IMG/VR virus record: IMGVR_UViG_3300030012_001865
Location: 1-64,000 of that record
Origin: a virus
Reading direction: 5' to 3' (one strand)
Length of the DNA stretch: 64,000 bases
Shown here in pieces: positions 1,522 to 34,714 of this stretch (positions are counted from its first letter, which is position 1; the number at the start of each line of letters is the position of its first letter). Position numbers and translations under genes: made by a program. Below the pieces are notes generated by a model. It had not been told where the DNA came from. It worked only from the letters and a program-made list of their open reading frames with translations, and ran no database searches.

Positions 1522-1854
1522 TTAACATTTCCAACGTCTTCTTGCTTGACGAATTCTTGAATTAGGATTATTTCTAGTTTTTGCACTACTTCTCTTTAGC
1601 TGTCCTAAAGATCTAGCGCAATAAGATTTTCTTCTTTTAGCTGCTTTACTACCTTTTTTAACTTTACCAGTTACAGCAGTTTTAAGTTTACTTCCAGGAT
1701 TAGCTTTTCTATAAGCTCTTACACCTTTAGCTGTCATACCAGCTCCAGATTTTGTAGATCTATAGTTAGCGCCTTTACCTTTAGTGGTTTTTCTTATAGG
1801 CTTTTCTTTCCTAACCTTACCACCTTTTTTCATTTTACCACAACCGCATCCCAT
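1522..1854 (-). CDS. Small, highly basic DUF6321-like protein
   Basis: A 110-residue protein rich in Lys and Arg. It starts MGCGCGKMKKGGK and contains the blocks TAKGVRAYRKANPGSKLKT and KRRKSYCARS, and ends in RRRWKC. These blocks resemble the small DUF6321-type proteins of marine phages (recognised from memory, not searched). The charge suggests nucleic-acid binding, either packaged with the genome or condensing DNA. Cysteines at both ends (CGC near the N-terminus and the terminal Cys) could bind metal or form disulfides. It sits two bases downstream of a Gly-rich protein gene and one base before the fibre gene. Function unknown. Confidence 0.75.
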   Translation of the reverse strand: MGCGCGKMKKGGKVRKEKPIRKTTKGKGANYRSTKSGAGMTAKGVRAYRKANPGSKLKTAVTGKVKKGSKAAKRRKSYCARSLGQLKRSSAKTRNNPNSRIRQARRRWKC

Positions 1855-2190: not shown

Positions 2191-2655
2191 TTACATAAAA
2201 TAATCTAGTTCGCGTTCTTTATCTTTTAAAATACTAGCTAATCTTCTAGTATTAGTTCTTGTTGGTATAAAAGAATATGCTGTAATATTTTTAACTATTC
2301 CTTTAGTCCAATAAAATCTATACTTATATCCGCCAGTATGATCATTAAGATGATAAATCCTCTTCCCTAGCTTTTTACTTGCAGCCCAATCAACCTTCAA
2401 TTTATTTTTATCATCGTATTTCATTTTAGACTTTTTAATTCTAATTGTTCCTAATCTATAAGGCAATCTCATTTCTTCAGAACTTATTAAAATTTCGTCT
2501 ATAAATAACTTATTAAATTCGTCACATATTTTTCTATAAGTTTTTTTATCTACTTGTAATTCTTCTATAGTATTATTTTTATAATACTTATATGCATCTT
2601 CAGATCCATTATCTTTTTTATATGTTCCTAATCCTCGTTTAGTATTTGTAAACAT
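2191..2655 (-). CDS. Conserved-looking late protein, unknown
   Basis: A 154-residue basic protein with many Lys, Tyr and Arg residues. The central segment MRLPYRLGTIRIKKSK followed by KKLGKRIYHLNDHTGGYKYRFYW gives a dense pattern of aromatic and basic residues. No transmembrane segment or signal peptide is visible. Its start overlaps the stop of the upstream connector-like gene by one base (TAATG), so the two are probably translationally coupled. The neighbourhood suggests a virion assembly or DNA-contacting role, but I do not recognise the family. Confidence 0.7.
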   Translation of the reverse strand: MFTNTKRGLGTYKKDNGSEDAYKYYKNNTIEELQVDKKTYRKICDEFNKLFIDEILISSEEMRLPYRLGTIRIKKSKMKYDDKNKLKVDWAASKKLGKRIYHLNDHTGGYKYRFYWTKGIVKNITAYSFIPTRTNTRRLASILKDKERELDYFM

Positions 2656-3353
2656 TATCTTCTTTGATTAGGTTGGAAATCTGCAGTATCATTATTTGTG
2701 TGATCTGTAAAAGTCTCCGTAAAAGTTTTCATATTCTGTGCTAGCATCATACTTTTTATTGTATCTAGCATAGAAATAGATATAGGATAATCATCTTTCT
2801 CTGGGTCATACGCAAAATCTTCTGTAGAGTTTCCTGTAAACTGTGCTATCTCTCTAGGATTTTGAAACACACCTTCTACTTTAATATGATCTAACATTTC
2901 AGACTCTGGACCAAATATATATACAAAATTATCTAAAAGAAAAGCAAATGTCATTCTCTTAGTATATTTATTAGTTCCTGCCCAAGGAGCTCTATTGTAA
3001 GGTATCGTATGAAAGTTTACAGATAAAATTCCTGTAGGCCCTACTGCTGTAATTAAATCGCTGTGCGATGTTTCTATAGCATTAGGTATTTGATGAAGAG
3101 ACCTTACAATTTTTATGTCAGGGTGTAACCCACAAGTAGTTCCTGATACAGACTCTACATGTAATTTAGGTATTAACTGTTTTATATTATCAGATATGCT
3201 TCGCCTTTTATTTATATCTTGACGTATTAACTGAGCTCTTATAGAATTTATTTGAAATTCTATCTGACGATCAGATATAATTTCATCATCTGATTGTACA
3301 CCACCTCTAATAAGGTTTTTAATATCGTATACTATTTCTTTTATTGTTGCCAT
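2655..3353 (-). CDS. Head-tail connector (adaptor/ring)-like protein
   Basis: A 232-residue protein beginning MATIKEIVYDIKNLIRGG followed by SDDEIISDRQIEFQINSIRAQLIRQDI. An N-terminal helical segment in which a disordered SDD stretch precedes a helix with RAxLIRQ is typical of crAss-like and related phage connector (ring) proteins. The middle is beta-rich (GILSVNFHTIPYNRAPWAG), and the tail carries a metal-independent helical segment. Identification rests on memory of the family plus late-gene context. Other virion roles are possible. Confidence 0.6.
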   Translation of the reverse strand: MATIKEIVYDIKNLIRGGVQSDDEIISDRQIEFQINSIRAQLIRQDINKRRSISDNIKQLIPKLHVESVSGTTCGLHPDIKIVRSLHQIPNAIETSHSDLITAVGPTGILSVNFHTIPYNRAPWAGTNKYTKRMTFAFLLDNFVYIFGPESEMLDHIKVEGVFQNPREIAQFTGNSTEDFAYDPEKDDYPISISMLDTIKSMMLAQNMKTFTETFTDHTNNDTADFQPNQRR

Positions 3354-4520
3354 TTATTTTAAATTAACTTGTAAATATCCTTCACATCCTGTTTCTTTAT
3401 TCCATATATAAGCTTGAGCTTCTCTAGGAGCATTGTACCCCATTGTTTTATGCCAAGCATCATTAGTACATATACTAGGTAAGAATCTTACTTTTATACC
3501 ATGATACGTATTAACTATCTCTCTATGCTGATGTCCGCAGTGCACCTCTCTATTAGGACACTCTGCAAACATAAGTGGCTGTTCTGTAGCCATAAGAAGC
3601 GGCATCTGTGCTGGCTTCTCTTTGTCTCCATGCGTAAACATTAGCATATTCTTTCCGTATCTGTAATATTTTCTTGAGTCATAACTGTTGTCTACTGTTA
3701 TAAACTCACAGTCTCTATACCAAGATTCTATTACTTCTCCTATATAAAACATACGTTCAAAGTCATGGTTACCTTGGATTACTATTACATCTACAGGTGC
3801 AAATGCAGATAGGTAATCTATTGCTGTAACTAATAACTTCCAGTATCCTCTAAAGGTCTGTTGCCATTCTTCAGCATCATGCTGTGGCGTGCCTTTAGTA
3901 GTAGCTCTACTATAACCTTCAGAGTTTAGCCCATCGTTACCAATAGGCAGTATAAACTTTTCTATGTTTAAACCTTTAGCTCTTCTGTGCAACTCTTTAA
4001 TAGTATTTAAAAAGTCTAGATTAGCCTGCTCTTGTGTTACAGAACCTATCTTACCATAATGAAAATCAGGTAAAGATATTTCGTAAGCTACAGGAGATCC
4101 CTCTTTAGCTGCATAGTTGGGTACAGCTACTTGCGGGATATACTGTTTCATTTCTTCAAAGAACTCTTTCTTAAACTCAGTAAGATCAGTTTTATTTTCT
4201 TTTGTTACAATAGAAAATCTGTATTCTCCTGAGCCTGACTGCCAGTGCTTTACTGACTGTACATCTTTTTTATCTATCCCTCGCTCTTTAAGATGCAAAT
4301 CGAGTTCGGGTATGTTAGGAACTATTTCTCCTACATCTTTAGTTTCATTAGTATTGCAATTAGTATCTACCCATTGATACCCTCCTGCATACTTTCTGCC
4401 TCCAAGACCTTTTATAACTTTATAGATATTACTTTTATCAATACCTAAAGCCATCGCAGCTTCGTGAGCAGTTGAGAATTCATCTACAAGATTTCCTTCT
4501 CTATCTAACTGTTGTATCAT
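3354..4520 (-). CDS. NUMOD1-metallophosphoesterase fusion protein
   Basis: A 388-residue protein with two parts. Residues 1-50 (QLDREGNLVDEFSTAHEAAM ... GGYQW) match the NUMOD1 helix-turn-helix module usually attached to homing endonucleases. Residues about 145-388 carry the calcineurin-like phosphoesterase motifs: D152-x-H154, G194-N-D196, G250-N-H-D253, H297-G-D and G329-H-x-H332. All metal ligands appear present, so it should be an active Mn/Fe-dependent phosphodiesterase or nuclease. It overlaps the holin gene by 4 nt and precedes the connector gene. Its substrate is unknown; DNA processing is inferred from the NUMOD1 part. Confidence 0.85.
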   Translation of the reverse strand: MIQQLDREGNLVDEFSTAHEAAMALGIDKSNIYKVIKGLGGRKYAGGYQWVDTNCNTNETKDVGEIVPNIPELDLHLKERGIDKKDVQSVKHWQSGSGEYRFSIVTKENKTDLTEFKKEFFEEMKQYIPQVAVPNYAAKEGSPVAYEISLPDFHYGKIGSVTQEQANLDFLNTIKELHRRAKGLNIEKFILPIGNDGLNSEGYSRATTKGTPQHDAEEWQQTFRGYWKLLVTAIDYLSAFAPVDVIVIQGNHDFERMFYIGEVIESWYRDCEFITVDNSYDSRKYYRYGKNMLMFTHGDKEKPAQMPLLMATEQPLMFAECPNREVHCGHQHREIVNTYHGIKVRFLPSICTNDAWHKTMGYNAPREAQAYIWNKETGCEGYLQVNLK

Positions 4521-4903
4521 TTTTTTCTAATTTTTTCTATACTCCTTCCAGCAAAATACGCACCGTACACGGTGATTAATAGTGTCTGGTAGATAGGAAT
4601 ATAAGCTGGAGATATAACAAATTCTCCTAAATTCCCATCAAATATAGAAATAATTATGAACATTGCTGTTAAAAAGATACAAATCAATGGTCTAATATTC
4701 TTACTAAGCCAGTTGTCAGACTTCATGTCAGCCTCCCAACGACGTGTTACTTGTTCTTGCCCTTTAGCTTCTGCGTCTAATAAAATTTGTTTCATCATAC
4801 GCTTTGCTTCCATACGCTCTTCATCTGACGTACTTAGTTTATCTACTACGTCTCCAATCTTCTCAATGGTGTTACCACCTAAAAAACTTAATAACTTACT
4901 CAT
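4517..4903 (-). CDS. Holin, 3-TM gene-transfer-release type
   Basis: A 128-residue protein. The N-terminal 60 residues are soluble and charged, with the segment RRWEADMKSDNWLSKNIRPL, the hallmark of the 3TM holin family (PF11351). Hydrophobic segments follow (ICIFLTAMFIIISIF and YIPIYQTLLITVYGAYFAG). The C-terminus is basic (RSIEKIRKK). It overlaps the endolysin stop by one base (TAATG) and the next gene by 4 nt, so lysis genes are coupled. Role: inner-membrane lesion that releases or activates the endolysin. Confidence 0.85.
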   Translation of the reverse strand: MSKLLSFLGGNTIEKIGDVVDKLSTSDEERMEAKRMMKQILLDAEAKGQEQVTRRWEADMKSDNWLSKNIRPLICIFLTAMFIIISIFDGNLGEFVISPAYIPIYQTLLITVYGAYFAGRSIEKIRKK

Positions 4904-5373
4904 TAAAGTGCTTTTATATTATCACTTGCATGTCTATAAGCTGTTTTACCTTGATCGTTTTTATAAGCTTCTAGTACTTGCTTTCTATTCTTACCTGGGC
5001 TTAATGATACATGTATCCAAGCAAAATCAAATTCATTTATTAATTGATCAAACTCTAATCCTGAGTCTAGTATCCAATCATACATGACTTTATTATTCAT
5101 TTGCCCCTCTTTCCAAAACTGCAAATCCATTGCTTGGCCTTTACAGTGTTGCGAGCGGCTGCTTCCTCCGATAGCACGATTAAGTTTCGGACTGCGATAA
5201 CCACTAGTAACACGGATAGGACCGATAGCATCCCGCATAGGCTGAATAAGCTCAGTAACGAGCGTTTGCAGATTCGCCAGATGTTCTTTTTCTGGTTCAT
5301 TACTTATTCCTTTTCTTCTTGCTGTATTGCTTCGAGTCATCTCAGACAATACAAAGTTTTTACTTAGTCTCAT
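4903..5373 (-). CDS. Endolysin, M15 family D,D-peptidase
   Basis: A 156-residue protein of the peptidase M15_3 type (D-Ala-D-Ala carboxypeptidase/endopeptidase). Zinc-site motifs are present: SGYRSPKLNRAIGG, then SQHCKGQAMDL with H76 and D83, and AWIHVS with H121. No signal peptide is visible, so export probably depends on the adjacent holin. Length matches single-domain phage M15 endolysins with no separate wall-binding domain. It acts on peptidoglycan cross-links at lysis. Confidence 0.9.
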   Translation of the reverse strand: MRLSKNFVLSEMTRSNTARRKGISNEPEKEHLANLQTLVTELIQPMRDAIGPIRVTSGYRSPKLNRAIGGSSRSQHCKGQAMDLQFWKEGQMNNKVMYDWILDSGLEFDQLINEFDFAWIHVSLSPGKNRKQVLEAYKNDQGKTAYRHASDNIKAL

Positions 5374-5382
5374 AATTTAAAT

Positions 5383-5718
5383 TTAAAATGCTTCCATTAC
5401 AATTTCATCTATAGAGTTCTGAACTTCACTTTTAGTAGCCTCCATAGTCATCATAATATTTGCTTGAAATCTTTTTACTTCTTCGTTATTGTTAAATATT
5501 ACAATAGTAGGTACAACTACTATTTTGTATTCTTTAGACCATCTTGCATCTGCTGTTATATCAACTCTTTCTACTTCACAATCTGTAAGCTTAGGTAACC
5601 AAGCTACTTCGTTAGCTTTATTGAAACTAGCATTAAACTCAACTGCAACCATTCCGTCAGGAAAGTCTTGAGCTAAAGCACTAGTGCAAATACAAAATAA
5701 AACAAATAGTTTTTTCAT
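5383..5718 (-). CDS. Secreted thioredoxin-fold protein lacking CxxC
   Basis: A 111-residue protein with a signal peptide (MKKLFVLFCICTSALAQ, cleavage likely after Ala16 or Gln17). The mature part looks like a thioredoxin fold. A beta strand VAVEFNA leads to a helix at the usual active-site position, and the VVPTIVIFNNNEEVKRFQA segment has the cis-Pro and the strand pair. Where WCxxC would sit, the sequence is NASFNKANEVAW with no cysteines. It therefore cannot be a redox enzyme and may be a binding or chaperone subunit in the periplasm. It lies between the membrane coiled-coil gene and the endolysin. Confidence 0.7.
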   Translation of the reverse strand: MKKLFVLFCICTSALAQDFPDGMVAVEFNASFNKANEVAWLPKLTDCEVERVDITADARWSKEYKIVVVPTIVIFNNNEEVKRFQANIMMTMEATKSEVQNSIDEIVMEAF

Positions 5719-5724
5719 AAGATA

Positions 5725-6009
5725 TTATTTTAAGTCATCTATCTTTTCCTCAAGGCGTAGCATATGTCCTTTAATTTCTTTTACATCATCTTGTGTTGTC
5801 ATAATAGTTTGACGTATCAACTGATCTTTCATGTCATACTCCATACGAGTAATCTCTGGATCTGGCGGTTTAGGTAATTCTTTTGCCTCTGATATATCTG
5901 ATTGTAATGTAAACCACATACCTACAAGAGTAAAGATTAACACTGCTATGCCAGCTAATGTTTTTATACTCAGTTTTAGAGTTGTGTCTTCATTTATTTC
6001 TTTTGCCAT
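5725..6009 (-). CDS. Membrane-anchored coiled-coil protein (lysis-associated?)
   Basis: A 94-residue protein: a short cytoplasmic N-terminus, one transmembrane helix (about residues 13-35, TLAGIAVLIFTLVGMWF), a proline-rich linker (LPKPPDPEITR) and a C-terminal coiled coil ending MLRLEEKIDDLK. This layout is seen in i-spanin-like and XhlA-like lysis accessory proteins. It lies near the holin and endolysin and between two exported proteins. A role linking inner membrane and envelope is inferred; no family was recognised. Confidence 0.65.
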   Translation of the reverse strand: MAKEINEDTTLKLSIKTLAGIAVLIFTLVGMWFTLQSDISEAKELPKPPDPEITRMEYDMKDQLIRQTIMTTQDDVKEIKGHMLRLEEKIDDLK

Positions 6010-6012
6010 CTG

Positions 6013-7050
6013 TTAAAATATTACATAGTTAATACCGACACTAAAGTTGTGCCATCGTCGGTTCCAATATTTATTATATCTACCTTCTACAAATACACCT
6101 AAACTTTTATTAAATCTGTATCCGTAAATAAGTCCTGCCGAGTAATCTAACCACTGTCCGTTATTAAACTTGTGGTAAGAGTATGTGTTATCTGTATCTA
6201 TATGATACGGCATAATGTTACCCCAGCTGTGAAACCAAAAGTCTTTTGTAAAATGATAGTAATCAAATCCTAATACTGCAGAGTACTCTACTATATTAGA
6301 TAGAGCACTTCTTTGTTTTTCTACATAGTCATCTATTACTTGAGGTATAACAACCTCTTCCCAAACTTCTTGACTAGTTGCTACTACCTCTCCACTGGGT
6401 GCTGAATACTGTCCATCTAATGTTATAGTGTATCCCTCTTGAAGTGCCAAGTATGTATAGTGTAATGTCCCATTGTCCAGCACCCAGTCTGCTAAAGGGT
6501 CAAAACCGTATGGTTCTGCAAGACGCTGTACTGCACCTACGTTTACAGATAGTTTACCTGTCTCACCTATTTGCAATCTAAATCTTTCTGATGCTTCAAA
6601 GTATTTTATATCTGCAAAACCATCTTCTAGATACTCTACTTTACTTACCCACTTATCAGCAACGTATCTTACAAAGTGATGTTGGTTAGTAAAGTTAACA
6701 CCTAAACGACGTACAAAATCAGCCTCGAATAAATACTCAAAGCCATCGACTCTACCAATGGTGGCAGCATCACTGTATGAATTTTCTGTACCATTATAAA
6801 AAGTAAGAGCCCTGTTTTCATAGCCAAATCGTTTTATTTTTCTTATACCTATAGATAATGTATAATCAAAAGGTGTTTCTATTGTTTGTTCTTCTAGTGT
6901 ACCAGATGTAACAGACCATATTTGATCATCACCTAATGATGTACCACCATTAACTGCAGCATAAAATGTAGAGTATTTAAATATTTTATGTAACCCTTGT
7001 GCATTTCCTAATAAAGGAATAAATAATAATAATATTAATAGTCTTTTCAT
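6013..7050 (-). CDS. Phage-encoded outer-membrane beta-barrel protein
   Basis: A 345-residue protein with a clear signal peptide (MKRLLILLLFIPLLGNAQ). Alternating hydrophobic and polar strands run through the mature protein, and it ends in FSVGINYVIF with a C-terminal Phe, the beta-signal of outer-membrane barrels. The N-terminal part (FYAAVNGGTSLGDDQIW) recalls a protein recurrent in marine Bacteroidota phages that has no known function. Its ATG overlaps the stop of the T9SS-cargo gene by 4 nt, so the two are probably translationally coupled. Possible roles are receptor masking, envelope weakening at lysis, or anchoring the T9SS product. Confidence 0.75.
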   Translation of the reverse strand: MKRLLILLLFIPLLGNAQGLHKIFKYSTFYAAVNGGTSLGDDQIWSVTSGTLEEQTIETPFDYTLSIGIRKIKRFGYENRALTFYNGTENSYSDAATIGRVDGFEYLFEADFVRRLGVNFTNQHHFVRYVADKWVSKVEYLEDGFADIKYFEASERFRLQIGETGKLSVNVGAVQRLAEPYGFDPLADWVLDNGTLHYTYLALQEGYTITLDGQYSAPSGEVVATSQEVWEEVVIPQVIDDYVEKQRSALSNIVEYSAVLGFDYYHFTKDFWFHSWGNIMPYHIDTDNTYSYHKFNNGQWLDYSAGLIYGYRFNKSLGVFVEGRYNKYWNRRWHNFSVGINYVIF

Positions 7051-9281
7051 TTCTTTAATACTTTTGTAGTGCTTGTATTACCATCATATGTTACACTAAA
7101 ATTATATATACCTGCAGGTAGTAAACTTACATCTAATTGATTTAATCCTTTTGTAGTATGTTTTTCTTTAACTTGTATTACAAGTTTACCTGATATATCA
7201 TATACCTCTATACCTACAGGACCGTTTGTTAATATGTTTAACATATCACCCATAGGATTAGGATACATAACTATATTGTGCCCTCTTAGTAAATCTCTTG
7301 TATCTAATGGACTATCCCAAGAACAACTCCAATATATTTGTTGACATTTGTCATCCCATTCGTTATTACAACAATAAGGATCTATCATAATAACCCAAGC
7401 GTAACATGTATCATTTAGCCAGTATGGTATACCAGGTCCATCAATACAGCCTGCATCATATAAACACTCTGCTTCTGTATTAGCAAACACATCGTAGTTA
7501 TAAGCACTTGCATCCATACAACCTTCTACTATTAACTCACACTCATCTTCAGCATTAGCTAGTGGATCATAATTAAACGCTGTACTATCCATACAGCCAT
7601 ATATAAATGGTACACAACTAAAATCTTCTGTATTAGCCTCTTCATTATAGTTAAATGCTTCTGGGTCAGTACAACCTAGAACTGTAATAAAACAAGAACC
7701 ATTATCAACGTTAGCTATAGGATCATAGTTATCAGCTAAAGTATCCATACAACCAAAATACAAACAAGACCCGTCTTCTGTATTAGCAGCAAAGTTATAG
7801 TTCCATGCTATTTCATCCATGCAACCAACAACTACTGCTACACAACTTTCGTCATCTACATTAGCAAGTGAGTCATAGTTAAATGCGAAGGGTGAGGTAC
7901 AACCTTCTACTATTTCAATACAAGAACCGTCATCGGTGTTTGCGTCAGAGTTATAGTTCAAAGCTTGTTCATCCAAGCACCCGTATACTTTAGGTATGCA
8001 ATAATCTCCACAAAATGGAAGAGCATTGTACACATACCAAAACGGCGGCTTGTAAGGTTTAAGTGCTCCCTGCCCATTATTAGAAAATGGGAACACACCA
8101 CCTTGAAGTGTTACATCACCGTTTGAGTTAATAAGTCTAAATGAGTTATGCATAGTCTGGAATGCAACTTCTGCAGGAGGAGTTTGCGGACTAGCTATTT
8201 CAAAGTAATATACTTTAACAGGTTTATCTGTTTCTAGTGTTATACCAAACTCTTGTGAGTAAGAGCCAGGTCCCATAGTATATGTACCAAGAATACTATC
8301 TTCTTGTACTACACCTATGTAGCAATCACCCCAACCGTCACCACCATCATCTTCTATAACAAGAGTGTAGTTACATGTAGGTACAATTTCGTTTAGTGTA
8401 GCTTGTGGATTAAAGTTAAATGCATTAGGGTTTATACATCCTAGTGTGTGTAATGTTTCACAGCTGCCATCATCAAAGTTAGCGCCTGGGTTGAACTCTA
8501 TATATGTATTGTTAGTACAACCTTCTACTATAGGTAAATCACATTGCTCTAACCATATAGGGCCAGAGTATGCAGCGTTACCAAAACCTGGTTCTGGTAA
8601 AGCCCATAGTGTGTCTAAACTACCACATGGTTCTGCATCACCAAGTATAATAAAGTCTCCATCTGTACCACCGAACAAAGATCCTTCTAAACCGTCACCG
8701 TATGTATCACTTAGTATAAGTTCTACACCTGTTTCAGGTACACATAAATCATATATAATAGTTTGATTAGCTTCTTCATAAGAATACTCACCAGCTGTAA
8801 CACTTTCTACAGGTTGTCCGTTAGACAGATCTGTTAGTATCCAACCTGTCTCACCAGGGTATTGATCTAGTGTAAGTTTAAAAATCATTTTAGCTTCTCC
8901 GTCAGAGCAGCTTATACCTACACAGCTGTTGTCATCAACTTGCGCCCAAGGATTAAAGTTAGGCGCCTCTGGGTTAGTGCATCCAAATACAGGATACTCA
9001 CATGTACCATCATTAAAGTTTGCTTCAGGTACATAGTTTAAAGCCAACATGTCTGTACAGCCTGGTACAGTATCTATAGGTAATGGGCAGTCTTCTGCAT
9101 CATACCCAAACTCTTCACAGTTAAAATCTATTACGTTTCCGTTCCATGTGTATGAACCGTCATCGCAAAAACCATCACCTAACCAAGCAGTAGGTGCAAC
9201 TGTTCCAAAGCAATCTAGAATAGTATCTTGTGCTGTAACTGTTAGACTTAAAACTAGAAATAAATAAAGTAATTTTCTCAT
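7047..9281 (-). CDS. Secreted repeat protein with T9SS C-terminal sorting domain
   Basis: A 744-residue protein with a signal peptide (MRKLLYLFLVLSLTVTAQ). Residues about 24-65 form an LNR/Notch-like calcium module (WLGDGFCDDG ... DCP). Residues 74-608 hold eleven cysteine-framed GC(T/M)DP-type repeats, interrupted by two DxGDG-type domains (DTYGDGLEG and DDGGDGWGD). A Cys/Trp-rich stretch follows. Residues 669-744 are a type A T9SS sorting domain, with YPNP near its start, VYDISGK, LDVSLLPAGIY and a final KVLKK. It should cross the inner membrane by Sec and be displayed or released by the host T9SS. No metalloprotease or enzyme motif is visible, so an adhesive or masking role is inferred. 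Confidence 0.9.
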   Translation of the reverse strand: MRKLLYLFLVLSLTVTAQDTILDCFGTVAPTAWLGDGFCDDGSYTWNGNVIDFNCEEFGYDAEDCPLPIDTVPGCTDMLALNYVPEANFNDGTCEYPVFGCTNPEAPNFNPWAQVDDNSCVGISCSDGEAKMIFKLTLDQYPGETGWILTDLSNGQPVESVTAGEYSYEEANQTIIYDLCVPETGVELILSDTYGDGLEGSLFGGTDGDFIILGDAEPCGSLDTLWALPEPGFGNAAYSGPIWLEQCDLPIVEGCTNNTYIEFNPGANFDDGSCETLHTLGCINPNAFNFNPQATLNEIVPTCNYTLVIEDDGGDGWGDCYIGVVQEDSILGTYTMGPGSYSQEFGITLETDKPVKVYYFEIASPQTPPAEVAFQTMHNSFRLINSNGDVTLQGGVFPFSNNGQGALKPYKPPFWYVYNALPFCGDYCIPKVYGCLDEQALNYNSDANTDDGSCIEIVEGCTSPFAFNYDSLANVDDESCVAVVVGCMDEIAWNYNFAANTEDGSCLYFGCMDTLADNYDPIANVDNGSCFITVLGCTDPEAFNYNEEANTEDFSCVPFIYGCMDSTAFNYDPLANAEDECELIVEGCMDASAYNYDVFANTEAECLYDAGCIDGPGIPYWLNDTCYAWVIMIDPYCCNNEWDDKCQQIYWSCSWDSPLDTRDLLRGHNIVMYPNPMGDMLNILTNGPVGIEVYDISGKLVIQVKEKHTTKGLNQLDVSLLPAGIYNFSVTYDGNTSTTKVLKK
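7050..7277 (-). other. T9SS type A sorting domain (coding segment)
   Basis: This segment encodes residues 669-744 of the secreted repeat protein. It shows the order expected of the Por-secretion tail (TIGR04183): YPNP, a short strand pair, VYDISGK, a basic stretch, LDVSLLPAGIYNFSV and a terminal Lys-rich strand. In cellular proteins this domain is recognised by the T9SS and removed or replaced by a lipopolysaccharide anchor by PorU. Confidence 0.9.
7458..9062 (-). repeat. Array of eleven GCTDP-type protein repeats
   Basis: Coding repeats within the T9SS-sorted protein. Each unit is about 22-24 residues, with Gly-Cys at the start, an Asn-Tyr-Asn/Asp-Pro centre, an Asp-Asp-Gly-Ser-Cys end and 1-5 linking residues. 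Two non-repeat domains (about 8450-8900 and 8000-8400) interrupt the array. Units are diverged at the DNA level, so this is an old array and not a recent tandem duplication. The paired Cys of each unit probably form one disulfide. Confidence 0.85.
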
Positions 9282-9463
9282 TTCTTTTTTCGTCTAGTAG
9301 TTCTTTTCTTTGCTGGTCTTTTCTTTGCAGTCTTTGCAGCACGTTTAAAGTTAGCCGCTGTAGGAGCTCCCTTGCTCCCAGGCTTTCTCATTTTTTCTCC
9401 ACTACCTGCTTTTATTCTTTTTCTTTTAGCGTGGATGTTTGCGTATAGTCCTCGTTTTGCCAT
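9278..9463 (-). CDS. Small histone-like basic protein
   Basis: A 61-residue protein, more than a third Lys or Arg, with no acidic cluster: MAKRGLYANIHAKRKRIKAG, then MRKPGSKGAPTAANFKRAAK and a Lys/Arg tail. This N-terminal block is familiar from small proteins of many marine phages. A DNA-binding role, co-packaged or condensing, is inferred from charge. It overlaps the T9SS-cargo gene start by 4 nt. Confidence 0.75.
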   Translation of the reverse strand: MAKRGLYANIHAKRKRIKAGSGEKMRKPGSKGAPTAANFKRAAKTAKKRPAKKRTTRRKKK

Positions 9464-9467
9464 AATC

Positions 9468-9680
9468 TTATTTTTTAGCGAATTTTTCTACACCTGAGAT
9501 TCCAAAACAGCCAAGCACTACCCATACAAATGAATCATATACAAACTCATTTATTACAAGGTCAGCGCCTACCCATCCTGTTACTAGATCAGCTACCATA
9601 ATCATACACATAACCGCAAAGGCTATAAACCCTACGATAGCTTTTTCATTCCAGTTGTTGTTGTCTTTAAAAATTTCCAT
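9468..9680 (-). CDS. Two-helix membrane protein, holin-like
   Basis: A 70-residue protein with two hydrophobic segments (IVGFIAFAVMCMIMVADLVTG and FVYDSFVWVVLGCFGISG), separated by a short acidic turn and followed by a Lys-rich end (VEKFAKK). Size and shape fit small phage holins or antiholins. Since a 3TM holin lies beside the endolysin, this may be a second holin or antiholin. Its start overlaps the preceding small basic gene's stop by one base. Confidence 0.65.
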   Translation of the reverse strand: MEIFKDNNNWNEKAIVGFIAFAVMCMIMVADLVTGWVGADLVINEFVYDSFVWVVLGCFGISGVEKFAKK

Positions 9681-10248: not shown

Positions 10249-13200
10249 TTAACATGTTCTACAATATTCAGCATTACATAAAGCTGATAATTTTTCTTTA
10301 TACTTTTCATATTTAGTTTGATTCATCTCTTCTTTAGAAGCTATCAATCCTTTATATAATGCATATATTTCTAAAGCTTCATCCGCTTGTTGGCTTTCAC
10401 AATTAGAGAGGTCTAATGCAAATAACTTTTCTTGTACACATTTTAAGAATACCCCTTCTACACAAGATCCATCATCAACTGTAGCTAATGGATTATAGTT
10501 AGAAGATGTTCTATCTGTACAGCCGTATACTTCGTTTTTAATCTGGAAAGGATAAGCTTTTATAGATGAAGTATTGTAAGGATAAGTTATTATTCTAGAG
10601 TATAAAATTATTCCGTTTTCATCTATAATTTCAAATTTATAAGAACCGTTTACTGTAGATCTAGTTGGTTGAGTGTTTCTACTTCCTACAACAAACTTGG
10701 ACATTAAAACATATCTATCATATCCTTTTACAATAATGTATTCGGTTGCAATTGAATCATCAACCAAATCGTCATTAGATATATCAGCAACTATTTTACT
10801 AGACTGCGCATCTACAATACGAATAGAATTACCTCCAGTTAAACTTAAAGTTTCGCCTGGCTCAGTTGAAATCTTAAACATAATTTTAGTACTTGCATCA
10901 TTATCTAAACTAGTTGCAATATTACATCTAGGAGAATCTACAAAAGTAATACCTTCTAATCCACATCCTACACTACAGTTTGGAGAGTTTGGATTAGTTG
11001 TAAAAGTATTATCAGACCCTAAGTTTAATAAAGTTCCTGTTCCTAGTCCAGTAGCTCCATAGTAAATACTGTGAAGTATATTAGTACCATTTCTAATATT
11101 GATAGTTACATTTTCAAATCTAGGATGTTGTTCAAATCCAATAGGTAAGAAATAGTAACATCCTGAACCTTCTAAAGTATCATAGTAAACTTTAGAATCA
11201 TCTTGTGTTTCCATATATTCACCTAGTGTAGGATCATACTGTCTAGATAAAACCACAAGGTTATCATGATTATATATAATCCATTCTTGAGGCATTATAG
11301 TTGAAGAGTAATTATTAAAATTATATCCATTAATTACACTGTCTCGATATATAGTCTCAATATTAAATCCTGTTTGAACCTCTGTTACAGGCTCTATACA
11401 TACTGTATTTGGATCAGTTAAGTACTGACAGTATTGACACTCAGGTGCTTCGTTTACATAACTTAAAGCTTGAGGGTCACAACATACTGGAGTCTCTACC
11501 ACATTAAAACAAGGAGGGAATTCGCATTCATATCCTGTAGAAGAACATTCTTGGCACGGTCCTAAATTTGCAGGATCTACACCATTTAAAGCTTCTGGGA
11601 AATCAGTGCTGCAACATACCTGCTCTAACTGAGGAGGACAGAACTCACACATATCTTCAGAAGGATAACAATCTAAAGTATCTTGAGGTGCTGACATGTC
11701 TAAAGTTTGTGTAGCAGGATCCCAGTTAGGACACTCTGATAGTTGTTGCAAATTATAGTTAAGAGCGTTAGGATTTGTACATACAGGTATACTTGGAATT
11801 TCTTCTTCATCACAAAGTCCATCACAATCAGCATCTCTATTACCGATACAGAATGCATTGGATACATCTATCTCAGTTGCTATTTGCACACCTGCCTCTG
11901 CAGTATTATATATAACATAATAAACAACTGATAAATGAACTCCATTAGGTTCAGCAGCCCATACGGAATGATCATCTACATGATAAACTGGTTCATATAA
12001 AGTTATACCAGGCAATGGGTAAACGTCCATATCGTAATTACCAGTGGTTTGATCATACTTTAATTCTCCTACTCTTCTCATCTCAAAGTTTAGTGCATTT
12101 GGACAACTTTCACCTGGTACATGAACATCTCCATAATTTGGATGCGCTGGATCTGGAATCATTGCTTCAGCACTTCTTGTTGAATGTATCATAAAGTTGA
12201 CACTTTCAGAAGTCCAACCAGTACCATCCGATATAGCTCTTTCTCCTGTTCTAGGATTTAAAATTATTAGACTTGTTGCTCCTGCAGGTAAATTAACTGC
12301 TGCTTGCTGGAACATAGTATGGACTGGATAACCTGATGCTCCTCCTCTAAATATTCCAAAGGATGGATTAAACTGGTCGTTCTGTTCCGTACTATAAAAC
12401 ATTCCATCTTCTCTTACTTCAAAAGCAACAACGTTGTTACTTGTAATATTATTACTAATAGCTCCATAAGTAGAAGAAGTTATTGTCTCGTCAATTTCAG
12501 ATCCATCAACTTCATAGTCATGGAAGTTATGAGCATAGAAAGGAGGATAGAAATAAATTCTTGTTTGAGATAGACCACCATTTATTTCTGGGAAAGGAGA
12601 TAGACGCTGAACCATTCCTTCAAAGTGATCAAACTTATTATATCTACCTACGTTACCACCAAAGATAAAGTAACCAGGAACAGGTAATACTTTATTAACA
12701 TCTTTTTCAATATCAAATACATTAACCATAAGATTAGTCCAAACATCAACATCGCTTCTAAACTCATTCCAACGGTACATGCTTCTAACTCCAAACATCC
12801 AATTCTTATTATTATCAATTCCCCAATCTTGAGGAAAGAAAACATCTACAGATCCGTCTACTAAACCATCTCCCCAATAAATAGCTGCGCCACATAGTGA
12901 GCTTCCACCATTATTATATACAAAATCATCGCATGTTGGCCACTCGCCTTCTACTTCATACTGACAAGAACCATCATCAACATTTGCCAAAGGGTTGTAA
13001 TTTAAAGCGTCTGGGTCCATACAACCTGGAATAGGCATAATACAAGAACCGTCATCTACGTTAGCTAGTGGATTGTAATTTATTGCCTCAGGATTTGTAC
13101 AACCATAGATAGGTTCAAAATCATTTTCACAAGAACAAGTATCTCCAACTACTGTTGGGAATAATTGATTACCAAATTCATCAAGACCACACTCTACTCC

Positions 13201-16200
13201 ACAACAAGGATCTAATTGCATACAGCCTCCATTACAAGAATTTGTACTTTGGTTTACACACGAAAAACATTCACCATATACGTGAGGACAAGCCTCAGCA
13301 TTAGTTAAATGTACTCCATCGACAATTACAGCTACTCCCTCATCATAGGCTAACTGTTGACAATATGAAGTATAGTCACATGAACCATCATTTATTGTAG
13401 CAGTAGGATCGTAGTTACATGCTGCTGGGTCTGTACATCCTGCACATGATTCGTAATCACACTCACACGGATGTCCTTGAATAGTAACAAAACTAGGAGT
13501 CTGAGGATGACCGCCATCACCAGGAGGAGTTCCTGGATTAATCACATACTGATTACATTCATAAGTGTGCGCTGGATCATAGTATTGACACGAGTTAGGG
13601 TCTGTACAACCATAACAAGAATAATCACAGCAAGAACCGTCTTCACATTTTACAGGAACAACCCCTTCAGGAATTACTACGTTATCACTTTGATAATAAT
13701 TACAAGCAAAAGAATCAAAACAAAAGCCTTGTTCGTTATATTCACAACAATCAGGATCGCAAGGAATAGTCGCATTAGGATCATAATTTGTTGCTAACGG
13801 ATCCATACAACCTTTACAATATCCCTCTTCTAAGCCTGTACCCCCTCCAACACATCCACATCCTTGCGGGTCGTCGTAAGCAGGTGTACCATTAAGATCA
13901 TTTACACAATCTCCATTACAGTCAAAGAAATAATCAAATTTATTACCATACTGATCTTCACCTCCACAATCACATTGTACTTGATCTTCCCAAGTTGTTA
14001 TACCTGGATAGAAAGTATTGTTTACTGCTATATAAGAATTATGCGCTACTTCCGAATTAACACATGCACCAGTACAATAGTCTAGGAAAGGCTGAGTATT
14101 GAACATACCTGGCGGTACATACGGACTATAACCCGCTCCTGCTGGATTGGTGTTTTGCCATTGAACACCTGTATTAGGATAACACTGTCCGTCACACCCT
14201 ATGATATGATTACAAGGATCGTATGATCCTGTTTGATTATTACCAATACAATAATCACATGGGTTAGGACCGTTTGGATCTGGCTCAAGAACATAGCACA
14301 TTGCTGGATATGAACAAGCTCCGTACTGAGTCCCTATAGAGCTTATTAGATTCGCCAGATATGGATGATCACAAAGAAATGTTGCCGTATCTGGATTTCC
14401 AAGACCATCTCCATTTGCATCTAAATAGAATGTCGATACTGTACAGTCAGCACAATACATTGGATCTCCAGGACATTTTCCTGCACAATCTTCTTCAGCC
14501 TCTGAACAGTTAACTTGTTTAAGTCCTGTAAGAGCAGAGTGATCTAATCGTCCCCATTTCTGTCCGCTTCTAGTATTGTCTGGTATAAGTATACCAGTAG
14601 TAGCGTCTTCATTGTAAGCACAGAAATATCTTGGTTCTGTAGACATTCTAAAAGCGTCTTCTGTTACATCACTATAAGTAATTTCTCCTGAATCGTTTAT
14701 AGAAGCTGTTTGATAAGTGTAGTCAAATATTTCATGGTACAATCTAAGTAAAGATGATGTTTGAGAAGGGTCTGTGTTAGTTGGAAGACTAACACCGCAA
14801 TCACAATAATATTGGCCCTCAGGTGATCCATTAACTTCACTATAAGAAACGCCCGAACTAGGAACTACAAAAGCTGGATCAATAGTTCCTTGTATAACTT
14901 CTATTGTTTCTCCGTCTATAGTATATATATCTGTTAAAGTTGTATCATAATTACATCCGCAAGGCGTACTTACATAGACTGCTCCTTCACAATCACAATA
15001 GACGCTTGCAAATTCTGGTTTAACATCAGTTGAATTACATTCACAATATGTAGGTTGTGGTGTTCCGTTGCAGTCGCAGTAACCTAACATAGGAGTGTTG
15101 TTTTGTGCTCCGTCGCATTCACACGTAGGTCCTTCTGGAGATTCACATAATGTCGCATCAAAAACAATAGTAGACCCTTCAGGTAACCCTTCTGGGGCAA
15201 CATAATTACAAGCAGCACTATCTCCACATAATCTAAATTGACATTTACTATTGTCAATAAGTGCAGCAGGAAAATCAGGATCTTCTACAGAACTATCATA
15301 ATTATGTGCTAATGTATGTCCGCAAACACTACATGAATAGTTCCATTCAGCACTGTCTGGTTTCATACAAACTCCACATAAATCTCTTCTGTTTCCTGTA
15401 CCACACCCACAGTCATCATAGTTATATACACAAGAGTTATCATCTATATCAGCTTGAGGATTATAATTACAGGTTAGGTATCCAGCATCTGGATTTCCAG
15501 GATCGGTACATCCATATATTATAATTTCTTGATTTGTTATCTCTCTTACATTATATACAACAGGATTAAAAAATTGCTGATAAACATTTATTTCTGGACT
15601 ACTTGTGTCCCCATCCCATCCAAAAAGAATGTCACCATTGTTTTGTTTATATGTATTCCAATCAGAAGCAAAAGTATAACTATTTAAATTATAGCCTTGA
15701 ACTGTTCTTGAAATACCTCTACCTATACTTCTTTCAGTTTCTATAATTTTTCCTAAAGTAGGAACATATCCTGCAGTTGAAGAAATTAGAATATCTCCAG
15801 CTGCATCTTTAAATATTCCAGAAACCCATATATTATTAAAGTCATTATTAAATGCATTAGTACTAGAATTTGCGTTAACGTTTAACCCAAAATAATTAGT
15901 TTCTTGGGTTGGGTCTATATCGTCTATAGCAAAATGCTGTCCAGCAATAGAACCAAGCTCATAGTCAGCCCCTCCTATATTAACAACTTCAGTAAGGTAA
16001 CAATATATACCAGTACCAGCTAATGTATTTGCCTCAATGTCTTCTATAAATGCAGTAAAATCAAATTTTAAAATTCTATTAGCTACAGGAATAGCGGCTT
16101 CCATTGTAATTGCTAAACTGTTCCCTGAAGAATTAGTATATTTTCTTCCTGAGTAAGTAGTTTCAACTAAAATTATATACTGACTACCGTCTTCTGCTAT

Positions 16201-19200
16201 TTTAGAAAATACAGCATCTGTATATAAAGCACTGTTGCCATAATTTGCACCTATAGTTGTAAGGTCATAATTTATACCGCAACTTCTAGTAGGTGTTACA
16301 TTGTGGTATATAAGTTCTCCAGCGTTTGTATTTTTATTACCGCCAGGATAACCTTGCATACCCCAATCACCATTACTTGCTATACCATTATTAAGATAAT
16401 CTATTTTATTATCATGTACACCTGGTGAAATATCACAAGCTTTATAATCATATAAAAGTTTTAAATTTGAAAATCCTGTTCGATCGAGAATTTCATGTAT
16501 AAATATTCTACCTTTCCAAATAGTAAACATATGTCTACTATCTTCACTAATAGTAGTAAAAGTATTTTGCATTTGGTTTTTATCCCACAATCTGTGAACT
16601 TCGCTCTCACTCCCTTCTAAGCGAGGAAAATTTAATCCGTCACTATATATAGGTCTTGAAGGATCTGAGAAAGGGACCATAATACCTGTTACAGTTCCGT
16701 TGTCAATGTAAAATACTTTTAATTGTAAAGTACCATTAAAACCTTCTATATACTTTTTACGACTTCCTCCACCATCGTTAAGACTTGCATACCGTTCTCC
16801 AGGGTAAGATCCTAAACAAAATGTTAGAGCTCCTACATAAGCTCCATCCGCAGCAGTTTTTGGAAAATTAAATACATTATAAAAGTCTTCATTTACAAAA
16901 CGATCTTCTCCTCCTTGAGCTTTAAGATCACGGCTAGGGCCTCCACCTAAACCTGTAAAATTACTACTTACTTTACTGTCGTCATTAGCTGGTGTAAAAT
17001 ATTTTTGGCCATCAGCTACTCCTGAAAGAAGTAAATTATTATTATTAAAAATACATTGGGTATCACTAACAGCGGTACCTTTCATAAAATCTATTTCAAC
17101 TGCTCTAAGTTGAGTTCTATTATAAGTATCCTGATTAAATCCTTCACCTCCGAACGTGTGTAGAAATATAACAACTCCTTTACTTGCTCTTGAGTCAAAT
17201 CCAAATGCAATATTTTGTTGGGTATTTCTTAAACCACTTATATATACTTGGTCCTCGCTAACATCAGCAATACTACCATTTATATATGTACTTGGGTCAT
17301 ATGCTATAGCAGGACTGTTAGGGTTCAAAGGCACCTTACTAGCCATAGATGTTCGATATATTTCGCTACCTGTTCTATCAAATATAACTAAGTCTCTACC
17401 GCCTCTTCCAGTAAAATCGTAAGCTGAATAAGTTAGTATATGATCAAATTCAGAGCTACCTAAACATGTTTCTGTTTCTTCACTAGGAACCGCAAGAGGA
17501 TCACAAATACGTTGCTCTTGAACTATAAACAGCCCATTACCCGCGTCATCTGTAAGTATTCCACTTTGTAGCATTTTTTCTCTATGCCCAAAAGCAGATA
17601 ACTCATTAGTTTTATTTATAGAGTACCCTGCTATTCCTGGCATACCATACTCATGAGTAATATTACTTAATGGAGTAAATGATTTAAAAGAGTATTCACT
17701 ATCAGTGTGATCTATACGTTCTACAAGTTTATCAGGGAAAACAAATTTATTAACTCTTCCGTAGGCACTAAAAGTTGTAACTACGTCAAATAAATTTGGA
17801 AGTTGGAATTCTGGATCTAGCAGCAGTACATTTTCTAATAAAGGAAGTTCTACTTTATTTTGTATAGCTTTTAAATCTAAATTAACTCCAGTAGAATTAT
17901 ATAATAAAGATACAGTAGAATCTAATAACGTTGCACTTAAAGTACTATTCATAGAAGCAGCTACTAAAGCATTTCCTTTCATAAAAAAGTTAGGTTCTAC
18001 ACCAGCACTATTAGAAAGTTCTATAATACTTTCAAGTATATTGTCTATAGGTAATATTTGATTACCTTCTTTAATTGTATACTTATATACTTTATTAAAC
18101 TCATCTACTGGGTCATATGCAATTACAAACATATATTGACCGCTTCTAGAAAATTCAATATCTATCGGGCTTCTATCGATTCCATCAGTACCTAAGCCGA
18201 CAGGAAGATGTTCTAAATATCCTAAATGTGTATCTCCTATAGAGTTTTCTGCATAATTACTATCAAAAGTATTAGGAACAAAAGTACACTGTACCCTATC
18301 CCATTCCATAAGAATAATACCCCATTGAGTAGTCATAGCTACTAAACCAAATCTAGAAAGCTCATCTTGTATAATAAATTTTGTAAAAACAGCACCATCT
18401 ATACCTTCTTGAGCTACATTAGTATCTAAAAGTTTAGTTGTAGGGTTCCATTTTTTAGTTTGTATATCAGATATTTGAGTAAACCCTTTATCTCCTGTAA
18501 AAGGAAATTCATATATACCCCAAGAGTTATCAAATGTTGCAGAGTTATCACTATCTGGATAAGCATCTTTATCTCCACTAGAAGTTACTTGGTAATTTTC
18601 ATACTGTTCTACAGTCAAAGAATCTATCTCAGCATTTCCACCGTATAATGGAAGTTGTTCAGAAATATCTAAATTACCAGAAATATTCATAATTACTAAC
18701 TCTTTCCTATTGTTAATAATTACTGCAGAATATCCTGTATTTACAAAAGAGTGATGTTTAAAAGTTACAAAAGCAATGTTAGAATTAGTTGCGACAGCTG
18801 CAGAGTTTTGATCTTTTCCTTCTATATTTAAAGAAAGCTCTGTGTCATCTAACTTATAAGAACTAAATTCAGAAAAATTACCAGAAGCAGATCCAAGAGC
18901 GTCATCACAGGGTTGTATAACTTCTCCATTATCTAAATAATTATCGCGCTCTGTAGATAATTTAAATATTCCTAAATTAGGAAGTTCGTTAGTATTAGAA
19001 TAATAAGTACTTATTACTAAAAATTCTTTATCATTTAACTTAGCTCCAACTAAATCTTTTGAAACTAAGTCAGAAGTATATGTAAATTGTTCTCCATAAC
19101 TATGAGGAGTTCCTGTAAATGTAGGTATAGATGTGTAACTACTATTAAGTTTATAACCAAGAACATCAGTAAAAACTAGTCGTTCTGTATTAGTTTTATA

Positions 19201-33262: not shown

Positions 33263-34714
33263 TTATACTGCAGAAGAGTAAATCAATTCAGCACAAGACA
33301 TTGGGTTCTGAATAAGAACACCTTGTTGAGCTTGAGCAAATAATTGGTAACCATCTACAGGAGACGAAGAACCTGATGAGAACGAAGTGTTAGGTCCTAA
33401 CGGTGAAGTTGAACCAGCAACGTGCCACATTAATTCTTTACGTCCTTTAGGATATACTCGTCGGATATTGTTTTCTCCACCAGAAGTACCCATGTTAAGG
33501 ATAGTGTATCGGTAAGACTCAGTGTATCCACCTTTTGGATGTGGTACACGGTTACGGATTTCATCATCATACAATGGTAAGTGAACTAGAGTAAACTTGA
33601 TACCTTGTGGTCCCATGTATTCTCTGTACTGACCTTGGAATGATAAGTTTTGTCCTGAACCACCAATACGCTTAGAGTCTAATGGTTGGAATCTTGCAGC
33701 GTGGTTTTCAAGAGCTCTGTGGAATTGTACCATACCTCTTTCACCTGTAAACGCTACAAAGTGACGTTGATCTTCTGGAAGTAAGTTAATTGATAAGTTC
33801 AATAAAACATCTTCTAAATAATCAATTGTAAAGTCTGTATAGTGGAACTTGTAAGATGGAGAAATTTGCTCACGTAAACCTGCACCTTCAACAATAGCAG
33901 ATCCAGAAGCACCCATCATATCATAAGTACCATTAACTTGTTTGTTAGACTTAGAGAACCAAAGCATACGCTCTTTCTCTTTCATCCACTGACACATGAA
34001 TTCGTATTCAGCATACTGAGTCCAGATCTTTGTAGTCTTATTAGATTTAGGATCCATCATCTCAATAACTAAAGGACGTTGGTGCATGTTACCAGGAATA
34101 GTGTAAGTCTTAGATAAGAAAGACATTGCATTACGCATTTTGAATGGAGAACTGTAATGAGTTTCACCGTAAGTTCTATTCAAAGTTCTTTCTTGTGGAG
34201 AGTATTCTTTACTTGCACGTGCTCCAGCAGAAATTAAACTTGGAGGAATAAAATCTGCAGCATTTGAAGTCATCAAAGAACAAGGGTATACATAAATAGA
34301 CCCTTCCATGTAAGGCTCTTGCATTACACGAACAGAAGTTTCACCGTCATCTAAAACTAGTTTATCAGACATAGCGAAATATTTTTCTGCCATTCTAATG
34401 TTTACGATAGCTCCGTATTGTCCAGGTTTAGCAGAAAGTCCGCCTCCACTATAACCTTGTATAACAACTGCTTTTTCGTCGTCCCCTTTTAGGTACCACT
34501 CAAAATCGTTGTCTGTGTCAAGCTCTTGCTCTCCACCACCTACAGATAGGAAGTAATCCATACCTGCATACTGATTCATACCGAATACTCTACTGATGAT
34601 ATTAGATACCAAAGTAGGCTCGGCAGCGAATACGCTTCCTAGGTGGTTCTCAGTTGTTAAGCCAGACCAGCTCTTAGGAGCGTACAATTGTAATGAACTA
34701 ATTGTGTTTGCCAT
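33263..34714 (-). CDS. Major capsid protein
   Basis: A 483-residue protein beginning MANTISSLQLYAPKSWSGLT. Length, position after portal and scaffold genes, and the segments NDFEWYLKGDDEKAVVIQG, FMCQWMKEKERMLWFSKSNK and GGSGQNLSFQGQYREYMGPQG fit HK97-fold capsid proteins of the crAss-like kind. Base composition here is slightly richer in preferred codons than its neighbours, as expected for the most abundant virion protein. The upstream 44 nt are A/T-rich with no Shine-Dalgarno. No separate protease gene is seen beside it. Confidence 0.8.
   Translation of the reverse strand: MANTISSLQLYAPKSWSGLTTENHLGSVFAAEPTLVSNIISRVFGMNQYAGMDYFLSVGGGEQELDTDNDFEWYLKGDDEKAVVIQGYSGGGLSAKPGQYGAIVNIRMAEKYFAMSDKLVLDDGETSVRVMQEPYMEGSIYVYPCSLMTSNAADFIPPSLISAGARASKEYSPQERTLNRTYGETHYSSPFKMRNAMSFLSKTYTIPGNMHQRPLVIEMMDPKSNKTTKIWTQYAEYEFMCQWMKEKERMLWFSKSNKQVNGTYDMMGASGSAIVEGAGLREQISPSYKFHYTDFTIDYLEDVLLNLSINLLPEDQRHFVAFTGERGMVQFHRALENHAARFQPLDSKRIGGSGQNLSFQGQYREYMGPQGIKFTLVHLPLYDDEIRNRVPHPKGGYTESYRYTILNMGTSGGENNIRRVYPKGRKELMWHVAGSTSPLGPNTSFSSGSSSPVDGYQLFAQAQQGVLIQNPMSCAELIYSSAV

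What the first reader, a model, noticed from the sequence alone, without database searches (positions are those of the whole stretch)
7047..9281. Phage protein built for display by the host type IX secretion system
A tailed-phage late operon encodes a 744-residue protein with a signal peptide, an LNR module, eleven GCTDP repeats and a complete T9SS sorting domain. The sequence directly shows the YPNP...GK...LPAGIY...KVLKK order. T9SS cargo is normally a cellular trait. A virus making its own T9SS cargo would imply that it remodels the surface of the infected cell, for example to block reinfection, mask receptors, or hold progeny virions.
Basis: partly seen in the sequence, partly recalled or inferred. 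Interest (0 to 1): 0.95.

Follow-up and report, generated by a model that had tools for sequence, protein, structure and literature searches.

The report
Phage four-gene host-surface display cassette
Marine viruses of Bacteroidota bacteria carry a conserved set of four genes that probably puts a sticky, cysteine-rich protein on the outside of the infected cell by borrowing the host's own type IX secretion machine, together with a virus-only outer-membrane protein of unknown function.

Summary
The ORF at 9281-7047 (minus strand, 744 aa) has a Bacteroidota-type signal peptide, about 11-12 degenerate cysteine repeats and a full T9SS type A sorting domain (TIGR04183 46 bits, cut-off 23; PF18962 E=1.3e-12; the modelled domain matches solved T9SS cargo domains). 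The LNR label is only partly right. The carrier is a crAss-like phage. Phage-encoded T9SS cargo itself is not new: two papers (2019, 2020) report it.

What I did not find described is the setting. The cargo gene belongs to a conserved module with a virus-only outer-membrane beta-barrel (6013-7050), a one-helix membrane protein (5725-6009) and an exported pseudo-thioredoxin with CXXC changed to NXXN (5383-5718). In a scan keyed on the membrane protein, each other member was present in 36 to 38 of 38 well-flanked loci. The module occurs in crAss-like and gp23 (T4-type) phages and has moved between them. The barrel occurs in only three MAGs among 84,980 species genomes, all in phage-like contigs, and in none of 50,697 phage records.

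Best reading: a viral system that remodels the infected cell's surface, perhaps to block re-adsorption. Export is well supported by sequence; the purpose is inferred.

The parts
7047..9281 (-). T9SS type A cargo, 744 aa, Cys-rich; first gene of the module
9228..9281 (-). Signal peptide of the cargo, residues 1-18 (MRKLLYLFLVLSLTVTAQ)
   Evidence: read from the translation; conserved in relatives
7449..7982 (-). Main array of degenerate GC-type cysteine repeats, residues about 434-611; further repeats at about 73-120 and 254-303
7050..7268 (-). T9SS type A C-terminal sorting domain, residues 672-744
   Evidence: TIGR04183 and PF18962; fold match to 8glk_D and 8qb1
6013..7050 (-). Virus-only outer-membrane beta-barrel, 345 aa, signal peptide and C-terminal Phe; start overlaps the cargo stop by 4 nt
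   Evidence: alignment A1, AlphaFold2 model, Foldseek, distribution, adjacency
5725..6009 (-). 94-aa protein with one membrane helix and a coiled-coil-like tail
5383..5718 (-). 111-aa exported pseudo-thioredoxin, CXXC replaced by invariant NXXN
4903..5373 (-). Neighbour: M15 peptidase, likely endolysin (not a conserved part of the module)
   Evidence: PF08291 4.6e-18; not regularly linked elsewhere
4517..4903 (-). Neighbour: GTA-type holin (not a conserved part of the module)
   Evidence: PF11351 4.7e-06, over its cut-off
9468..9680 (-). Neighbour: 70-aa protein with two predicted membrane helices; a similar ORF lies just upstream of the cargo in L067
   Evidence: no confident Pfam match
9278..9463 (-). 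Neighbour: 61-aa very basic protein overlapping the cargo start by 4 nt
10249..20163 (-). Neighbour: 3304-aa protein without signal peptide that carries related GC repeats in its second half
   Evidence: no Pfam or NCBIfam match
2655..3353 (-). Context: crAss-type tail ring protein 2
   Evidence: PF25702 1e-34
33263..34714 (-). Context: crAss-type major capsid protein
   Evidence: PF23898 5e-131
36026..38464 (-). Context: crAss-type portal
   Evidence: phrog_6547 1.1e-141
39401..41518 (-). Context: crAss-type large terminase subunit
   Evidence: phrog_6681 1.3e-118

Best explanation
The gene encodes a phage-made cargo of the host's type IX secretion system and is one member of a four-gene, virus-specific envelope module. 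SHOWN by sequence: signal peptide and complete T9SS sorting domain on the cargo; near-obligate genomic partnership with a beta-barrel protein, a one-helix membrane protein and a pseudo-thioredoxin; purifying selection on all four; horizontal movement of the module between phage groups. INFERRED: the cargo is exported by Sec, its many cysteines pair in the periplasm (the pseudo-thioredoxin perhaps acting as a redox-dead chaperone), the host T9SS carries it across the outer membrane and removes the sorting domain, and the phage barrel anchors it or works with it at the surface, with the coiled-coil protein linking to the inner membrane. MOST LIKELY PURPOSE, still a guess: an adhesive coat that changes what the infected cell binds, above all lowering adsorption of further virions and of released progeny to the doomed cell and its debris.
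For: Sorting domain by two curated models and by fold. TIGR04183 over cut-off in 42 of 47 other virus records that hold the barrel or a cargo relative. Module: in 38 well-flanked loci found through the membrane protein alone, barrel 36, pseudo-thioredoxin 38, cargo 37; cargo and barrel mostly overlap by 4 nt. Barrel absent from 394 other Bacteroidota genomes and, apart from one short chance match, found among species genomes only in three phage-like contigs. Pairwise dN/dS about 0.20 for the sorting domain and 0.09 for the barrel. gp23 phages do not form a clade in the barrel tree (AU p about 6e-38), so the module has moved. Phages with a variant cargo tail share that tail with exported proteins of a Flavobacteriales MAG, and that MAG encodes SprA. 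Cargo N-termini include a MAM domain, typical of adhesion.
Against: No experiment shows export, expression time or function. The exclusion role rests on analogy. The cargo shows no sign of the diversifying selection often seen in receptor contests. In a divergent clade the tail is not recognised by TIGR04183 (3 of 50 records), so T9SS use there is inference. Hosts are not known; only MAG contigs link phage to host lineage. dS is near saturation, so dN/dS values are rough.
Confidence: 0.5

Rival explanations
1. Adhesion and spread: the displayed protein glues infected cells to each other, to other hosts or to particles, so that progeny are released near new hosts.
For: Repeat-rich modular cargo with MAM or weak carbohydrate-binding domains at the N-terminus; variable repeat number; late structural/lysis neighbourhood.
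Against: Does not by itself explain the highly conserved barrel, membrane protein and pseudo-thioredoxin; no binding partner is known.
Confidence: 0.2
2. Lysis aid: the four proteins form an envelope-spanning complex that opens the outer membrane, with the 94-aa protein acting like an inner-membrane spanin.
For: In the window the module is followed by an M15 endolysin and a holin, and the 94-aa protein has the general shape of an inner spanin.
Against: Among 38 loci found through the 94-aa protein only 2 had the M15 gene and none the holin nearby; other lysis enzymes could have been missed. A 700-1100-aa T9SS cargo is an odd lysis part.
Confidence: 0.13
3. Nutrient uptake: barrel plus surface binder act like a small SusCD-type pair that feeds the infected cell with oligosaccharides.
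For: Best structural match of the barrel is the sialic-acid porin NanC (E=1.9e-5, TM 0.53 by target length), with KdgM lower down; weak carbohydrate-binding match in one cargo.
Against: The match may only reflect small-barrel geometry (9% identity, rmsd 8.7); no transporter gene was seen to travel with the module.
Confidence: 0.08
4. Virion part: the cargo is a tail or fibre protein that merely reuses host-like domains.
For: It lies in the structural region, next to a 3304-aa protein without signal peptide that shares the GC repeats.
Against: Signal peptide and C-terminal sorting domain are conserved together in the family, and the partners include predicted exported and outer-membrane proteins; a cytoplasmically assembled virion protein needs neither.
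Confidence: 0.06
5. Captured host gene or assembly artefact without a viral role.
For: The domains resemble those of cellular T9SS cargo.
Against: 4-nt overlap with its neighbour, recurrence in many independent contigs, virus-only barrel, purifying selection.
Confidence: 0.03

Closest known systems
T9SS type A cargo proteins (TIGR04183 / PF18962)
   Same: Signal peptide, C-terminal sorting domain with the usual motif order and seven-strand fold.
   Different: Encoded by phages, tied to a virus-only barrel and two small exported or membrane proteins.
Phage T9SS cargo of Cryophage (PMC7468147)
   Same: Phage genes with T9SS type A sorting domains; superinfection exclusion or competition suggested there.
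   Different: There three variable genes (endoglucanase, GH39, PA14) described as metagenomic islands; here a conserved four-gene module with non-enzymatic, Cys-rich cargo. The Cryophage record was not in the collection, so its gene content was not compared.
T9SS sorting-domain proteins near crAss-BACON genes (PMC6949934)
   Same: crAss-like phages, T9SS proteins next to the head section.
   Different: BACON-domain context; no barrel module is mentioned in the passages read.
SprB-SprF type pairs (PorP/SprF, PF11751)
   Same: A T9SS cargo gene followed by an outer-membrane protein gene (own knowledge of SprB-SprF).
   Different: The phage barrel shows no relation to PorP/SprF: profile comparison Prob 42% over 77 N-terminal columns only, against 100% for the internal control.
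Phage outer-membrane exclusion proteins such as T5 Llp (own knowledge)
   Same: A phage protein sent to the host outer membrane that may protect progeny from wasted adsorption.
   Different: Llp is one small lipoprotein and does not use T9SS; no relation was tested.

Membership tests
T9SS type A cargo | C-terminal sorting domain over the curated cut-off of TIGR04183 / PF18962 | tested here: met
   46.3 bits against 23; 48.2 bits against 27
T9SS type A cargo | Sorting domain has the seven-strand fold of solved T9SS cargo domains | tested here: met
   8glk_D TM 0.77, 8qb1 TM about 0.7
T9SS type A cargo | N-terminal Sec signal peptide | tested here: met
   Read by eye and by a crude hydrophobicity rule, conserved in relatives; no dedicated predictor was available
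T9SS type A cargo | Secretion depends on SprA/PorV/PorU and the domain is cleaved | not testable with these tools
   Needs experiments; the MAGs holding module contigs encode SprA
LNR (Notch) module | Three-disulfide LNR pattern or Pfam match | tested here: not met
   Four conserved cysteines, no Pfam LNR match at E<=1
PorP/SprF family (for the barrel) | Match to PF11751 or profile similarity along the barrel | tested here: not met
   No Pfam match; profile comparison confined to the N-terminus
Thioredoxin (for 5383-5718) | Thioredoxin fold signature with cis-Pro region | tested here: inconclusive
   PF00085 just below cut-off for the window protein, just above for two relatives; invariant Pro-Thr
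Thioredoxin (for 5383-5718) | Active-site CXXC | tested here: not met
   Both cysteines replaced by invariant Asn
Crassvirales (carrier phage) | crAss-type capsid, portal, terminase and ring proteins | tested here: met
   PF23898, phrog_6547, phrog_6681, PF25702, PF25710
Spanin pair (for 5725-6009) | Inner spanin with a partner outer-membrane lipoprotein | not tested
   Shape only; no lipoprotein partner was searched for

The most novel reading that the evidence does not exclude
Phages of Bacteroidota own a dedicated, virus-only, four-protein machine that spans the infected cell's envelope and displays a large disulfide-rich adhesin on its surface through the host's T9SS. It is exchanged as a unit between unrelated phage groups and adapted to the host lineage's dialect of sorting signal.
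Probability: 0.5. Interest if true: 0.88.

Novelty: new variant of a known kind. Interest (0 to 1): 0.76.

Why it matters
Single phage T9SS cargo genes have been noted before. A conserved multi-gene module with a virus-only outer-membrane barrel would show that remodelling the infected cell's surface through T9SS is a standing strategy of widespread marine phages, not an accident of gene capture. It gives defined targets (barrel, pseudo-thioredoxin, membrane protein) for testing how phages of Bacteroidota control adsorption, lysis or spread, and a possible way to link uncultured phages to hosts by sorting-signal dialect.

Tried and rejected
Contamination or misassembly: rejected, since the gene overlaps its operon neighbour by 4 nt and the layout recurs in many independent contigs. 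Plain capture of a host gene: the barrel is absent from 394 other Bacteroidota genomes, and of four genome-contig loci three are whole modules in phage-like contigs and one is a short chance match. Barrel as PorP/SprF: not supported (a first attempt, used wrongly chosen ORFs and its control failed, so it was redone). Barrel among solved structures by sequence: none. Module in deposited phage records: no barrel match; thioredoxin-like hits were only Streptomyces phage thioredoxins. My first idea that every member has a canonical sorting domain was wrong: a divergent clade has a short variant tail. My first idea that the module belongs to the lysis region holds only for part of the family. A 245-kb contig first looked like a jumbo phage, but two capsid and two cargo copies 119-127 kb apart suggest two joined genomes.

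Full report
OBSERVATION. The ORF is real but on the minus strand, 9281 to 7047, 744 aa. TIGR04183 and PF18962 match its last 73 residues well above their curated cut-offs, and it is the only such place in the 94,285-base virus record. An AlphaFold2 model from 30 family sequences folds residues 670-743 as a seven-strand sandwich (whole-protein pTM is only 0.27, so the domain arrangement is unknown). Foldseek pairs that domain with the NucA sorting domain bound in the T9SS complex (8glk_D, TM 0.77, 30% identity) and with the mirolase domain 8qb1. The LNR label is only partly right (four cysteines, no Pfam match) and the repeats are degenerate.

CARRIER. The window is a crAss-like phage: capsid PF23898 5e-131, portal phrog_6547, terminase phrog_6681, ring proteins PF25702 and PF25710. 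In the window an M15 endolysin and a GTA-type holin follow the module.

THE MODULE. Mapping 62 viral loci that encode a cargo relative showed the same companions again and again: a 345-aa protein with signal peptide and mostly an aromatic C-terminal residue, a 94-aa one-helix protein, and a 111-aa exported thioredoxin-like protein. The 345-aa protein models as a beta-barrel of about 12 strands (pLDDT 71, pTM 0.67). Its best structural match is NanC, which may reflect no more than small-barrel geometry. It has no sequence relative in the PDB, no PHROG match and no match in 50,697 phage records. Across Bacteroidota, 1 of 395 genomes matches, and that is the MAG G030, found earlier through its phage contig. 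In genome contigs four loci were returned from 84,980 species: three hold the whole module in phage-like contigs and the fourth is a short chance match.

CO-OCCURRENCE. The barrel start overlaps the cargo stop by 4 nt in most loci; elsewhere the two lie within about 3 kb on one strand. TIGR04183 is over cut-off in 42 of 47 virus records (the other two of the 49 searched are MAGs). An independent scan keyed on the 94-aa protein gave 80 loci; of the 38 with at least 3 kb on both sides, barrel 36, thioredoxin-like 38, sorting-domain cargo 37, but endolysin 2 and holin 0. So the four genes are the unit and the lysis neighbours are not. The cargo profile used was built from this family, made with TIGR04183, are the independent check. 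The scans keep only the best 80 loci, and many contigs are fragments.

A DIVERGENT CLADE. Scans started from distant members keep barrel, membrane protein and thioredoxin-like gene, but TIGR04183 is over cut-off in only 3 of 50 of those records. Where the neighbourhood is complete, the fourth place is held by a Cys-rich protein with signal peptide that ends in a short conserved tail (consensus ITDLLGRPxKExKNxLLFYIYSDGTVERKIIK). NCBIfam finds nothing in eight of these. A profile of the tail finds 94 viral loci; among 198 Bacteroidota genomes it finds 15 places in the Flavobacteriales MAG G030, one each in two others and none in 195. In those genomes the tails lie at protein C-termini, and most of the complete proteins begin with a signal peptide. 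I read this as a host-lineage dialect of the sorting signal that the phages have adopted; that it is a T9SS signal is inference. G029, G030 and G113 encode SprA.

SELECTION AND TRANSFER. Median pairwise dN/dS is 0.20 for the sorting domain, 0.14 for the whole cargo and 0.09 for the barrel (synonymous sites are near saturation, so these are rough). The module occurs in records with crAss capsid (11 of 47) and in four with T4-type gp23 capsid. In the barrel tree the gp23 phages do not form a clade (AU p about 6e-38; quick tree with some long branches), and one gp23 phage (L113) has a barrel 86% identical to the window's. The module has therefore moved between phage groups. Some relatives without a detected crAss capsid carry crAss-type terminase and portal, so crAss-like carriers are undercounted.

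PARTS. The thioredoxin-like protein keeps the Pro-Thr of the fold, but both active-site cysteines are replaced by an invariant Asn pair. Since the cargo is rich in cysteines, a redox-dead chaperone is a reasonable guess. The 94-aa protein has a conserved helix and a charged, coiled-coil-like tail. Cargo N-termini vary: a MAM domain in L153 and a weak carbohydrate-binding match in L059, which fits an adhesin. The neighbouring 3304-aa protein, and similar large proteins without signal peptide in other phages, carry related Cys repeats; whether virion and displayed protein interact is open.

MECHANISM. The best-supported picture is a viral module that rebuilds the envelope of the infected cell and displays an adhesive cargo through the host T9SS. 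Export and module membership are strongly supported by sequence (I would give about 0.85); that the purpose is to limit adsorption is a guess (about 0.35). The joint statement is scored 0.5. Late timing is inferred from the structural and lysis neighbours only. Adhesion, lysis, nutrient-uptake and virion rivals are listed with their weak points.

PRIOR WORK. Phage T9SS cargo was reported in Cryophage (PMC7468147), where superinfection exclusion or competition was proposed, and in crAss-BACON phages (PMC6949934). Searches of open-access papers found no description of the four-gene module or the barrel; most subscription journals are not covered. The kind is known; the module is a new variant.

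Noticed in passing
L316-L327 and 94 viral loci: A short C-terminal tail (ITDLLGRPxKExKNxLLFYIYSDGTVERKIIK) shared by phage cargo and exported proteins of one Flavobacteriales MAG, missed by TIGR04183: perhaps an undescribed variant of the T9SS sorting signal.
   Followed up: partly
window 10249-20163: A 3304-aa protein without signal peptide and without Pfam or NCBIfam match carries the same type of Cys repeats as the displayed protein; similar large Cys-rich ORFs lie near the module in other phages.
   Followed up: partly
window 3354-4520: Weak NUMOD / I-HmuI-like N-terminal match followed by a weak calcineurin-like phosphoesterase match in one 388-aa ORF: an odd fusion.
   Followed up: no
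window 1522-1854: Small basic DUF6321 protein that recurs near the module in many relatives.
   Followed up: no
L012:2151-3740: A phage GroEL (phrog_5725, 8.9e-135) encoded about 6 kb upstream of the module.
   Followed up: no
record of L035 (G013, 245,646 bases): Two crAss capsid genes about 127 kb apart and two cargo genes about 119 kb apart: probably two joined genomes and not a jumbo phage.
   Followed up: no
L005 / L048 (one 95,981-base contig): Cargo and barrel occur at both ends of this contig; the two barrels are 90% and 93% identical to the window's: possibly two modules in one genome.
   Followed up: no
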